From: an uncultured Pelagibacteraceae bacterium
GTDB taxonomy: Bacteria; Pseudomonadota; Alphaproteobacteria; Pelagibacterales; Pelagibacteraceae
Reading direction: 5' to 3'
Length of the DNA stretch: 43,858 nt
Assembly (NCBI GenBank): GCA_902595795.1
Contig: CACJRK010000010.1
Coordinates: 1-43,858, forward strand
Of this stretch, positions 18,214 through 31,530 are shown in pieces. The translations under genes were made by a program, and so were the position numbers. Within the stretch, counting starts at the first letter, position 1. Each line of letters starts with the position of its first letter. The notes beneath the pieces were generated by a model that saw nothing but the letters and a program-made list of their open reading frames with translations, was not told where the DNA came from and did no database searches.

Positions 18214-18250
18214 ATAAATTGTTGATATATTTTAAAGAGAGGGGGAGATT

Positions 18251-19306
18251 ATGAACAATATTAAAGGTCCTGCAATTTTCCTAGCACAATTTGTAGGTGA
18301 AGATAAACCGTTTAATTCTCTAGAAAGTATTTGTAAGTGGGCATCTTCTTTGGGATATAAAGGTGTACAAATTCCAAGTTGGGACAGCAGATTAATAGAT
18401 CTCAAGAAAGCATCTGAAAGTAAAGATTACTGCGATGAAGTCAAAGGTATAACCAAAAAATATAATCTTGAGATAACAGAGTTATCAACTCATCTTCAAG
18501 GACAACTGGTTGCAGTGCATCCAGCATATGACGCAGCTTTTGATGGATTTGCTGTACCTGAAGTTAGAGGCAATCCAAAAGCAAGACAAGAGTGGGCAGT
18601 AAATCAATTAATGATGGCAGCTAAGGCCTCAAAAAATCTTGGACTAGATAGGCATGTTACTTTCTCTGGAGCACTAGCTTGGCCTTATGTTTATCCTTGG
18701 CCACAAAGACCAGAAGGATTGATTGAAAACGCATTTAATGAACTTTCAAATCGATGGAAACCAATTCTTGATCAATTTGATCAAAATGGAGTTGATCTTT
18801 GTTATGAAATACATCCAGGTGAAGATCTTCATGATGGTATTACATTTGAAATGTTTTTAGAAAAAGTTGGTAATCATAAAAGATGCAATATGCTTTATGA
18901 TCCTAGCCATTATGTTTTACAGAATCTAGATTACTTGGCTCATATAGATATTTATCATGAAAAAATAAAAATGTTTCATGTTAAAGATGCAGAGTTAAAT
19001 CCTACTGGAAAACAAGGGGTGTATGGTGGTTTCCAATCTTGGGTTAACAGAGCAGGTCGATTTAGATCTCTTGGCGATGGACAGGTAGATTTTAAATCAA
19101 TCTTTTCAAAGTTTACTACTTATGGTTATGATGGTTGGGCAGTTCTAGAATGGGAGTGTTGTCTGAAACATCCAGAAGATGGAGCAAGAGAAGGAGCTGA
19201 ATTTATCAAAAATCATATTATAAACACTACGGAAAAAGCATTTGATGATTTTGCGGAAAGTGGTGCTGATATTGAAGCTAACAAAAAAATGTTGGGTATA
19301 AACTAG
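18251..19306 (+). CDS. Sugar phosphate isomerase/epimerase (xylose isomerase-like TIM barrel)
   Basis: This 351 aa cytoplasmic protein belongs to the AP endonuclease 2/xylose-isomerase-like barrel fold. Metal-ligand candidates appear in the expected order at strand ends: Glu186 (CYEIHPGED), Asp217 and His220 (LYDPSHY), His243 (FHVKDAE) and Glu300/Glu302 (VLEWEC). Such enzymes isomerise or epimerise sugars, ketoses or inositol-like rings. It is coupled to the following Gfo/Idh/MocA dehydrogenase through a TAGTG overlap and divergent from the ABC-DhaKL operon. Together this suggests it acts on the imported compound. The exact reaction cannot be read from the sequence. Confidence 0.88.
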   Translation: MNNIKGPAIFLAQFVGEDKPFNSLESICKWASSLGYKGVQIPSWDSRLIDLKKASESKDYCDEVKGITKKYNLEITELSTHLQGQLVAVHPAYDAAFDGFAVPEVRGNPKARQEWAVNQLMMAAKASKNLGLDRHVTFSGALAWPYVYPWPQRPEGLIENAFNELSNRWKPILDQFDQNGVDLCYEIHPGEDLHDGITFEMFLEKVGNHKRCNMLYDPSHYVLQNLDYLAHIDIYHEKIKMFHVKDAELNPTGKQGVYGGFQSWVNRAGRFRSLGDGQVDFKSIFSKFTTYGYDGWAVLEWECCLKHPEDGAREGAEFIKNHIINTTEKAFDDFAESGADIEANKKMLGIN

Positions 19307-30100: not shown

Positions 30101-30328
30101 TTAATTATTTGTTGCGTTTGCTAAAATTTCTTTGTTTATTCTTTGTGATTTTGCAGTTCTAGCTTGCTCGTTAGTAAGAGATCCAAATTTAGCAATAAAT
30201 TTGTTTTGTTCTCTAACAAATTGCATTTTAGTTACCAAATATAAACTAAGGAAACTTAATAGAGTAAAGCTAAACGCAGATAACACATATACTGCATATC
30301 CATTCATAAAAAGTGTTTCATTTATCAT
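30101..30328 (-). CDS. ccmD: Haem exporter small protein CcmD
   Basis: This 75 aa protein has one hydrophobic helix (about 10-32, NGYAVYVLSAFSFTLLSFL) followed by a basic, soluble tail, as in CcmD, which stabilises the CcmC-CcmE complex. CcmD is poorly conserved, so the assignment rests on size, topology (the Tyr-rich start of the helix is typical) and position. It overlaps ccmC by 4 bases (ATGA) and is followed by ccmE. The tail here is somewhat longer than average. Confidence 0.8.
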   Translation of the reverse strand: MINETLFMNGYAVYVLSAFSFTLLSFLSLYLVTKMQFVREQNKFIAKFGSLTNEQARTAKSQRINKEILANATNN

Positions 30329-31032
30329 AATCTATCTAAACCTTTATTTTTTATTTTTATCAGTTCTGTATTATATTTCATTAAGAAAATTAACAATGAA
30401 AAAAGAGCAAATGCCGCAGTCATCATAAATAATGGATAAAGCATTGATGAATGAATTGAGCTTTTTGACAAAATATTAATAGATGCAGGTTGGTGGAGTG
30501 TGTTCCACCAATCAACAGAATATTTTATTATTGGAACATTAATAATTCCTAAAATGGTTATAAAAGTTGAAATCTTATAAACTTTTTCTTCTTTATCATA
30601 AATTCCCCATACAATTAAATACATTGCATAGAACAGTGCTAAAATTAACATTGAAGTAATTCTTGCATCCCAAGCCCACCAAGTTCCCCAAGTTGGTTTT
30701 CCCCAAATTGATCCTGTGACTAAAGCAATAATATTAAAAACAAATCCTGAAGGAGCTAAGCTTTTAGACATTAAAAAAAAGTTTTTATTTTTAAAAACAA
30801 AACCAGAAATTGATAGTAAAGTTATAGATGAAAATATTCCAAGTGTAATCCAAGCAGCAGGAACATGAACGTACATAATTCTGACCGCATCACTTTGTTT
30901 GTAATCTTTGGGAGATAAGACTAATGCTTCTACTAAGCCTATACTTAATACGACAATAAACAAAAATAAAACGTACTTTGGTGCCTTTGATGTGATTTTG
31001 TAAATTTTGTTGGGCTCAAAAAGTTTAAACAT
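30325..31032 (-). CDS. ccmC: Haem exporter/handler CcmC
   Basis: This 235 aa protein has six transmembrane helices. The WWD domain is WGKPTWGTWWAWDARITS (110-127), with flanking haem-ligand His candidates in YVHVPAAW (His56) and near LHQPASI (about 180-186). It loads haem onto CcmE. It is the first gene of this ccm cluster. The usual upstream ccmA and ccmB genes are not adjacent here. It lies 177 bases after hspQ, across a candidate structured RNA. Confidence 0.95.
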   Translation of the reverse strand: MFKLFEPNKIYKITSKAPKYVLFLFIVVLSIGLVEALVLSPKDYKQSDAVRIMYVHVPAAWITLGIFSSITLLSISGFVFKNKNFFLMSKSLAPSGFVFNIIALVTGSIWGKPTWGTWWAWDARITSMLILALFYAMYLIVWGIYDKEEKVYKISTFITILGIINVPIIKYSVDWWNTLHQPASINILSKSSIHSSMLYPLFMMTAAFALFSLLIFLMKYNTELIKIKNKGLDRL

Positions 31033-31057
31033 ATTTTAATTTAGAATTTTTTTTGTG

Positions 31058-31155
31058 ATTTCTATTATGAAATAGTTTTCTGATCAAGAATGCAGAGGGG
31101 AGATAATGTGATTGAAATTAACGTTTAACACTCTTGACCAGAAGATAATGAAAAT
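31058..31155 (-). ncRNA. Candidate structured RNA element between hspQ and ccmC
   Basis: The 177-base gap 31033-31209 has no convincing reading frame but can fold into a long rod on the minus strand. The inner stem pairs 31143-31129 with 31078-31092 (15 pairs, two as G-U) around a 36-base loop containing TTAAACGTTAA. The outer stem pairs 31155-31145 with 31058-31068 (11 positions, one G-U and one C-A mismatch). A one- versus nine-base asymmetric bulge lies between them. All three wobbles are valid only in minus-strand RNA. The rod-bubble-rod shape could be a ccmC leader, an intercistronic element, or a 6S-like RNA. There is no T-tract, so it is not an ordinary terminator. Confidence 0.35.
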
Positions 31156-31209
31156 ATAGCTAATTTATATGGCCTAGATTTGAGCTAAATGTGGTTGAAT
31201 AATGTTGCC

Positions 31210-31530
31210 TTAATTAGAAAGCTTAAAATAACTAGAGCCTTTTTTCCCTGAAAAAATCTCTTCAATTAAAGGGTGTTTTATTGGCTCATCAGAATCATCT
31301 ATAAGCAAGTTTTGCTCTGAAACATAAGCTTCATAAGTTATCTCATCATTTTCCGCTAATAAATGATAAAATGGCTGATCTTTTCTTGGTCTCACATTTT
31401 TTGGAATAGATTGATACCATTCCTCAGAATTATTAAATTGAAAATCAACATCATAAATCACACCTCTAAATTCAAAGTGTTTATGTTTAACAATATCTCC
31501 AATTGAAAATTTTGCTTTTTGAACTGGCAT
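31210..31530 (-). CDS. hspQ: HspQ / YccV-like hemimethylated-DNA-binding domain protein
   Basis: This 106 aa single-domain protein has the characteristic opening KFSIGDIVKHKHFEFRGVIYDVD (a GxVV/Y beta barrel), then PFYHLLAEN and EAYVSEQNLL, then HPLIEEIF at the end. This order is typical of HspQ. E. coli HspQ is a heat-shock protein and Lon specificity-enhancing factor, and it also binds hemimethylated oriC DNA. The small residual C-terminus (GKKGSSYFKL) is slightly longer than usual. It stands alone upstream of ccmC. Confidence 0.9.
   Translation of the reverse strand: MPVQKAKFSIGDIVKHKHFEFRGVIYDVDFQFNNSEEWYQSIPKNVRPRKDQPFYHLLAENDEITYEAYVSEQNLLIDDSDEPIKHPLIEEIFSGKKGSSYFKLSN

What the first reader, a model, noticed from the sequence alone, without database searches (positions are those of the whole stretch)
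31033..31209. Extended rod-like RNA structure between hspQ and ccmC
Seen: 15-pair inner stem and 11-position outer stem separated by an asymmetric 1/9-base bulge. All three wobbles are legal only in the minus-strand RNA, a hint of selection on the RNA. No T-tract. Inference: a regulatory leader of the ccm operon, or a small RNA with a 6S-like rod-bubble-rod layout.
Basis: partly seen in the sequence, partly recalled or inferred. Interest (0 to 1): 0.52.

Follow-up and report, generated by a model that had tools for sequence, protein, structure and literature searches.

The report
Conserved RNA hairpin before ccmC
The gap between two genes of an abundant ocean bacterium carries an RNA hairpin whose shape and loop have been kept through evolution while the letters of its stem changed, so it is very probably a real but, as far as I could find, undescribed control RNA.

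Summary
The inner hairpin is real and selected as RNA on the minus strand. It lies in the hspQ–ccmC gap of all 109 close-relative loci holding both genes (99 distinct gaps, 73 distinct hairpins, each forming 14–16 of 16 pairs). Two-sided changes occur in 13 cells; wobbles are 171 G-U against 1 A-C. In four other genera all 36 usable loci have a 12–19 bp hairpin at the same place, many with unrelated stem letters, and CUCCCU (one CUCACU) at the 3' side of the loop. The outer stem is not conserved in divergent relatives, Rfam gives no credible match, and 6S is not supported.

Best reading: a regulatory hairpin near the 5' end of the ccmC mRNA, below a promoter-like block and 47–48 nt (medians) before the ATG, showing its C-rich loop to a partner in trans. 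A separate anti-Shine-Dalgarno small RNA remains possible. No partner was found, and Hfq was not found in 14 SAR11 genomes. Published arrays show ccmC mRNA rising about tenfold in sulphur-limited stationary phase (PMC5069961, passages); the passages seen name no RNA upstream of ccmC.

The parts
31078..31143 (-). Conserved RNA hairpin: 16-bp stem (31143-31128 with 31093-31078) and 34-nt loop (31127-31094)
   Evidence: MFE fold; letters checked; 97.3% of cells paired and 6 pairs with two-sided changes in 73 distinct homologues; 171 G-U against 1 A-C
31094..31108 (-). Loop motif CAUUAUCUCCCCUCU on the 3' side of the loop; core CUC(3-6)UY, complementary to Shine-Dalgarno-like GGGAG
   Evidence: 96 of 99 distinct gaps of close relatives carry CUC(3-6)UY, the other 3 differ by one letter; 34 of 36 loci of four other genera carry CUCCCUY, the other two CUCCCUA and CUCACUC
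31168..31196 (-). Conserved upstream block AACCACATTTAGCTCAAATCTAGGCCATA (promoter-like; DNA role inferred)
   Evidence: Conserved in an alignment of 122 distinct upstream sequences from five genera although stems change; a GACA-like end within 22-45 nt of the stem was not matched in 1 of 86 and 7 of 36. Best match of its profile in genome G012 is this locus (27.1 against 17.2 for the next)
31151..31158 (-). TATATTTT, possible -10 element ending 7 nt before the stem (inferred)
   Evidence: Conserved T/A pattern at -15 to -8 in close relatives and -17 to -10 in other genera; no start site measured
31058..31155 (-).
30325..31032 (-). ccmC, first gene downstream; ATG 45 nt after the hairpin
   Evidence: TIGR01191 213.6 bits over cut-off 186; PF01578
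26918..30328 (-). Genes following ccmC: ccmD-like, ccmE, ccmF, a thioredoxin-like gene (in the place where ccmG is usual, recalled), ccmH
   Evidence: PF03100, PF16327, Redoxin/AhpC-TSA and PF03918; ccmD only below its cut-off, 19.6 against 25.95 bits
31210..31530 (-). hspQ, gene upstream on the same strand
   Evidence: TIGR02097 123.6 bits over cut-off 38.05

Best explanation
A family-wide regulatory RNA hairpin of Pelagibacteraceae (SAR11), read on the minus strand as the 5' part of the ccmC mRNA leader. Transcription probably starts just before the stem, under the conserved block (inferred). The stem is a scaffold whose letters may change as long as they pair (shown). It holds open a 17-36 nt loop whose 3' side shows CUC(3-6)UY (shown). 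Because no matching GGGAG is conserved in hspQ, ccmC or at the ccmE/ccmF junction (tested), the loop is most likely read by something in trans: a GGGAG-bearing RNA or a pyrimidine-binding protein, for example a cold-shock protein (inferred). Binding would change stability or translation of the ccmC mRNA (inferred).
For: Covariation and strand asymmetry: close relatives; 21 distinct hairpins of genus g8: 99.0% paired, 9 cells with two-sided changes, 0 of 500 shuffles; two other measures reached by 11 of 500. Stem turnover with constant loop motif in four further genera. Strict place: 109 of 110 loci had both genes with the gap between (L028 had neither); 36 of 39 further loci had both genes on the stretch and all 36 have the hairpin; 31 of 31 covariance-model loci examined carry both genes. 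The 15 model-negative genomes listed for the window's genus also give no HspQ or CcmC match (the CcmC query rang in 10 other genomes and the HspQ query in 4), so the whole locus is unassembled or lost there, not the element alone. Spacing hairpin end to ATG: 29-55, median 48, in 93 distinct gaps (6 of 99 dropped: 5 without ATG at the inferred start, 1 not matched by the pattern); 41-52, median 47, in 36 loci of other genera. Not coding: no frame is open through all 99 cores on either strand, and core length varies 66-75. ccmC mRNA rises about tenfold in sulphur-limited stationary phase of HTCC1062 (PMC5069961, passages).
Against: No transcript, start site or partner has been seen. Promoter spacing is odd: the GACA-like end of the block lies only about 11 nt before TATATT, too short for an ordinary -35. 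In streamlined genomes gene order may be kept anyway, so strict linkage and spacing are weak proof of a cis role. In the four ccmC loci of family f2 looked at, an open frame of over 200 codons ends 8-31 nt before the ccmC frame, leaving no room for the hairpin, so ccmC can do without it. Shuffle controls do not remove relatedness, as the tool warns. The published ccmC induction was not tied to any leader in the passages seen, and that HTCC1062 itself carries the hairpin was not checked.
Confidence: 0.5

Rival explanations
1. A separate trans-acting small RNA: the hairpin presents an anti-Shine-Dalgarno loop that pairs with GGGAG ribosome-binding sites of other mRNAs and lowers their translation.
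For: C-rich motif kept in loops of 17-36 nt, within 4 nt of the 3' arm in the 34 other-genus loci measured, as expected for a pairing seed. Promoter-like block just upstream. In genome G012, GGGAG ends at -18 to -4 of 13 genes (3.6 expected) and AGGGAG of 7 (1.0 expected); by my reading of the proteins they include proteorhodopsin, two ammonium transporters and an alcohol dehydrogenase with a 12-nt perfect match.
Against: AGGAG, an ordinary SD, is enriched by a like factor (53 against 11.9). Over 694 ortholog pairs the real loop has no more conserved complementarity than decoys: 57 pairs at 6 nt or more (decoy means 92 and 85), 7 at 7 nt (19.5 and 19.5), 3 at 8 nt (2.2 and 4.5). The best G012 target has close homologues in only 7 of 31 genomes and its site drifts. 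No terminator-like site; no Hfq in 14 SAR11 genomes. Steady spacing to ccmC.
Confidence: 0.3
2. A structural boundary only: a 5' stabilising stem or a cutting site for a double-strand nuclease separating hspQ and ccmC messages.
For: Long, near-perfect 12-19 bp stem with free sequence turnover; located between two co-directional genes.
Against: Does not explain the loop motif, kept in 130 of 135 (96 of 99 gaps and 34 of 36 loci), the other five differing by one letter.
Confidence: 0.12
3. Intrinsic terminator of hspQ.
For: Stable stem-loop 41-84 nt after the hspQ stop in 93 gaps, and a run of 4-6 T within 15 nt after the stem in 24 of them.
Against: Loop of 17-36 nt; T run 3 or less in 69 of 93 close relatives and in 36 of 36 other-genus loci; no terminator-like site in the window.
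Confidence: 0.04
4. A 6S-like RNA or another known Rfam family.
For: Rod-like layout in the window's letters with the outer stem, which over all 99 gaps pairs slightly above shuffles; 6S not found elsewhere in the window's genome by RF00013 (genome 84% complete).
Against: No Rfam match at gathering score in the window and only chance-like ones up to E 10; outer stem at shuffle level in divergent gaps; about 70 nt without a central bubble.
Confidence: 0.01

Closest known systems
alphaR8 small RNAs (Caulobacter SisA-D), PMC12559287, passages seen
   Same: A short single-stranded C/U-rich stretch (UUUCCUCCCU in SisA-D, AUUAUCUCCC(C)UC here) of the anti-Shine-Dalgarno kind; alphaproteobacterial.
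   Different: SisA-D have a Rho-independent terminator, carry the stretch downstream of a weak hairpin, come in four copies and work with Hfq. Here one copy was found in G012, no terminator-like site, the motif sits inside the loop of a long stem, and Hfq was not found in 14 SAR11 genomes.
RsaE/RoxS C-rich-motif small RNAs of Firmicutes (recalled; titles and abstract starts seen)
   Same: C-rich motif used for pairing in organisms where Hfq is not the hub (recalled).
   Different: No sequence or structural relation tested; different phylum, independent genes with terminators (recalled).
Structured leaders and motifs described in SAR11 (rpsB, rpsL, ffh, SAM-V; rhtB, pntA, bablM, SAR11_0636 elements), PMC2704228: abstract, section 5 part 1 of 2 with Table 1, sections 10 and 18 read
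   Same: SAR11-confined structured intergenic RNAs found by comparison, several of them leaders.
   Different: None of the Table 1 gaps adjoins ccmC (SAR11_0287, tag), and none of the motifs in section 10 is at this locus; the single bulged hairpin of the rhtB element is elsewhere.
6S RNA (RF00013)
   Same: Rod-like drawing in the window.
   Different: No model match; outer half not conserved in divergent relatives; far shorter conserved part.

Membership tests
6S RNA (RF00013) | Covariance-model match | tested here: not met
   No match at gathering score in the window, none up to E 10 in 30900-31350, none in the own genome (the same search rings in E. coli, B. subtilis, Caulobacter and two others of 14 controls)
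6S RNA (RF00013) | Closing stem, central bubble and terminal stem all conserved | tested here: not met
   Outer stem at shuffle level in 43 divergent gaps, 30 G-U and 30 A-C; over all 99 gaps 74.3% against a shuffle maximum of 73.2%
alphaR8 / SisA-type small RNA | Single-stranded anti-SD stretch | tested here: met
   C-rich motif in the loop; the exact SisA 10-mer is not present in the window's loop
alphaR8 / SisA-type small RNA | Rho-independent terminator | tested here: not met
   No terminator-like site in the window; T run of 4-6 within 15 nt of the stem in only 24 of 93 close relatives and 0 of 36 others
alphaR8 / SisA-type small RNA | Works with Hfq | tested here: not met
   PF17209 in 0 of 14 SAR11 genomes, controls ring in 5 of 14 including E. 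coli and Caulobacter; a very divergent Hfq is not excluded
cis-acting mRNA leader | Constant position upstream of one gene in divergent genomes | tested here: met
cis-acting mRNA leader | Same transcript as the gene; effect on its expression | not testable with these tools
   No RNA data available
Riboswitch | Conserved ligand-binding core with multi-helix or pseudoknot fold | tested here: inconclusive
   The consensus fold of the hairpin alignment has a single stem; the rest of the gap was not folded as an alignment
Intrinsic terminator | Stem directly followed by a T-tract | tested here: not met
   (see the 24 of 93 gaps with a run of 4-6 T nearby)

The most novel reading that the evidence does not exclude
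An Hfq-free anti-Shine-Dalgarno RNA: the first about 70 nt of the ccmC transcript act in trans as a mimic of the 16S rRNA tail and damp translation of mRNAs with GGGAG ribosome-binding sites when ccmC transcription rises under stress, which would help explain the reported mismatch between SAR11 transcriptome and proteome (PMC2864753, passages).
Probability: 0.1. Interest if true: 0.8.

Novelty: new variant of a known kind. Interest (0 to 1): 0.5.

Why it matters
SAR11 bacteria are among the most numerous cells in the sea and have few regulators (recalled) and very short gaps between genes (PMC5069720, section 9), so a gap of about 150-195 nt with a selected RNA hairpin in every locus of the family that held both genes is likely to do real work. 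It is a well-defined target whose function can be asked with existing metatranscriptomes, it adds a candidate RNA family, and the apparent absence of Hfq makes the conserved anti-Shine-Dalgarno-like loop worth explaining. It also offers a possible cause for the stress induction of ccmC mRNA.

Tried and rejected
Rfam at gathering score and at E up to 10: three chance-like hits only, two eukaryotic snoRNA families and a scattered psRNA6 match (E 0.26).

Element outside the hspQ-ccmC locus: covariance-model hits outside the window's genus, in G137 and G155, fall inside long open frames and were rejected. Of the weak extra hits inside the genus, four are this locus on the other strand and the rest (L150, L151 and the other strand of L150) lie inside long open frames.

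Pairing of the loop with its own message: no conserved GGGAG in ccmC or hspQ in 109 loci. GGGAG at the ccmE/ccmF junction is in 16 of 101 close-relative loci and 0 of 36 others. A second TTATCTCCC inside ccmC of the window (30910-30918) is not conserved.

Targets in trans: ortholog test negative. Energy ranking: shuffled loops reached the best real energy in 1 of 30 (window), 9 of 30 (part of G110) and 17 of 30 (part of G101) trials. The alcohol dehydrogenase of G012 and the sugar-isomerase-like gene at 18251 (names by my reading) were followed as leads and are patchy, with close homologues in 7 of 31 and 7 of 37 genomes.

Upstream block as a shared promoter: two other profile hits in G012, one coding and one non-coding at 1181781 with nothing found there that bears on this.

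Literature: PMC2704228 abstract, section 5 part 1 of 2, sections 10 and 18; PMC6429828 sections 7 and 12 and two sets of passages. The HIMB5 list of PMC6429828 (one small RNA, two unexplained candidates, five protein-binding candidates) is in a supplementary table not held, so overlap with this gap cannot be excluded. PMC8632094, PMC11109978 and PMC2864571 by find only; PMC12559287 and PMC2864753 passages only; PMC5069961 passages only; PMC5069720 outline and section 9 only.

Full report
What is there. The finding is the 177-nt gap between hspQ and ccmC, both on the minus strand. After ccmC come a ccmD-like gene, ccmE, ccmF, a thioredoxin-like gene and ccmH. The 80 CcmC relatives kept by the genome scan are all titled Pelagibacteraceae or Pelagibacterales. 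On the minus strand the gap folds into one strong hairpin of 16 pairs with a 34-nt loop; the plus strand gives nothing unusual.

More than chance. The best helix of the gap beats 299 of 300 dinucleotide shuffles. Over 135 distinct gaps, 0 of 1350 shuffles reached the real value.

Selection on the RNA. I collected 110 loci, 30 by DNA search in genomes the tool labels as the window's genus (the window itself included) and 80 by CcmC. 109 have hspQ, gap and ccmC, giving 99 distinct gaps and 73 distinct hairpin cores; each core forms 14-16 of the 16 pairs. Over 1168 cells, 97.3% pair, 6 pairs have two-sided changes and 13 cells carry them; 0 of 500 shuffles reach any of the five measures, and sliding the partner by 1-3 columns drops pairing to 37.5-47.0%. 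The tool warns that shuffles do not remove relatedness. The cells are 965 Watson-Crick, 171 G-U, 1 A-C and 31 other. If the plus strand were the RNA, the G-U cells would be mismatches, so the minus-strand RNA is what selection sees.

Beyond the genus. Four other genera of the family (labelled g5 to g8 by the tool) keep the hspQ-gap-ccmC order. Of 39 loci put to the test (38 from these genera, one from family f2), 36 had both genes on the stretch, and all 36 contain a 12-19 bp hairpin at the same place: 29 in g8, 4 in g7, 2 in g5, 1 in g6. Many stems share nothing evident with the window's, yet the loop carries CUCCCUY in 34 and CUCCCUA or CUCACUC in the other two. In close relatives the C run is 3 to 6 long: CUC(3-6)UY in 96 of 99 gaps, with one letter changed in the other 3. 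Within g8, 21 distinct hairpins pair in 99.0% of cells, with 9 two-sided changes; for two measures 11 of 500 shuffles reach the observed value, so that set is weaker. In family f2 the arrangement differs: in G061 hspQ is followed 10 nt later by another gene, and in 4 of 4 ccmC loci an open frame ends 8-31 nt before the ccmC frame, so there is no room for the hairpin.

What is not there. Over all 99 gaps it pairs in 74.3% of cells, just above the shuffle maximum of 73.2%, with 97 G-U and 47 A-C; in the 43 divergent gaps it pairs in 60.6% against a shuffle mean of 58.0% and maximum of 62.9%, with 30 G-U and 30 A-C. I read the overall excess as near copies sharing letters. No Rfam family matches at its gathering score in the window, and the three matches up to E 10 look like chance. 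RF00013 finds no 6S RNA in the window's genome, which is 84% complete, while control genomes ring. No terminator-like site was found in the window, though 24 of 93 relatives have a run of 4-6 T within 15 nt of the stem. No reading frame is open through all cores.

Place and copy number. A covariance model of the core matched 185 of 297 genomes of the order at E up to 0.1; 183 belong to the window's genus, and the hits in the other two lie inside long open frames. The 15 negative genomes listed for the genus give no HspQ and no CcmC match either, so the whole locus is unassembled or lost there. In 31 of 31 hit loci examined, hspQ and ccmC are present. In the complete genome G012 it is the best hairpin with CTCCC in its loop (score 34.5 against 26.0 for the next).

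Upstream and downstream. A block close to AAACACATTTAGCTCAAATCTnnGaCA ends about 25-28 nt before the stem and is kept across genera although the stem is not, followed by a TATATTTT-like stretch; in 1 of 86 close relatives and 7 of 36 others its GACA-like end was not matched by my pattern. This looks like a promoter with a start close to the stem, but the distance between the GACA end and TATATT is about 11 nt, too short for a usual -35, so the reading is inferred. The distance from the hairpin to the ccmC ATG is 29-55 nt, median 48, in 93 of the 99 gaps and 41-52 nt, median 47, in the 36 others.

How it may work. The constant features are the stem as scaffold, the loop motif, the upstream block and the distance to ccmC. 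I therefore favour a 5'-leader hairpin of the ccmC message read by a partner in trans. The loop has no conserved complement in hspQ, ccmC or at the ccmE/ccmF junction, which argues against a simple cis switch. The motif is complementary to GGGAG ribosome-binding sites, so a trans-acting RNA is the main rival. In G012, 13 genes have GGGAG at -18 to -4 (3.6 expected) and 7 have AGGGAG (1.0 expected), but the ordinary AGGAG is enriched by a like factor, 53 against 11.9. Across 694 ortholog pairs of G012 and the 800 kb held of G110, the real loop shows no more conserved matches than decoys: 57, 7 and 3 pairs at 6, 7 and 8 nt or more against decoy means of 85-92, 19.5 and 2.2-4.5. The best single match is neither widespread nor stable. 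Hfq was not found in 14 SAR11 genomes.

Published expression. In HTCC1062, ccmC mRNA shows fold changes of 10.35 in sulphur-limited and 2.18 in control stationary phase (Table 1) and 4.74 for limited over control stationary cells (Table 2); no CcmC peptide was detected (PMC5069961, passages). The authors explain this by haem c need; the passages name no upstream RNA. I did not verify that HTCC1062 carries the hairpin. Its gap is not in Table 1 of PMC2704228, which lists gaps above about 26% GC, while gaps here run from 22% to 34% GC, so it may have fallen below that cut (inferred).

Novelty. The listings (titles and abstract starts) of the searches show no paper on an RNA between hspQ and ccmC; subscription journals are mostly not held. 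The supplementary list of HIMB5 candidates in PMC6429828 could include it and was not available. I rate it a new candidate RNA family of a known kind, with the mechanism open.

Noticed in passing
14 SAR11 genomes searched: Pfam Hfq (PF17209) is found in none of them, including complete or nearly complete genomes of several genera, while E. coli and Caulobacter controls ring.
   Followed up: partly
window 18236-18250 (+): The sugar-isomerase-like gene at 18251 (name by my reading) has a very G-rich ribosome-binding site (AGAGAGGGGGAGATT) nearly complementary to the window's loop; close homologues are in only 7 of 37 genomes searched, all with G-rich sites.
   Followed up: yes
window 30910-30918 (+): GGGAGATAA, the same nine letters as in the hairpin loop, recurs inside ccmC; it is not conserved in relatives.
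   Followed up: yes
window 31096-31102 and homologues: The C run of the loop varies between 3 and 6 letters among close relatives: 28, 59, 9 and 3 of 99 gaps.
   Followed up: no
L323 (G012:C1:1325673-1326734): A zinc-type alcohol dehydrogenase (name recalled from its sequence) has a 12-nt perfect complement of the loop at its start in G012, but the site drifts in its 6 close homologues.
   Followed up: yes
L065, hspQ-ccmC gap: The start of the gap holds a short near-tandem copy of GCAACCATCATT, making it the longest gap listed (195 nt).
   Followed up: no
loops of genus g8, for example L182, L190, L195: A second stretch ACTTCTT lies a few nt before CTCCCTC in many g8 loops.
   Followed up: no
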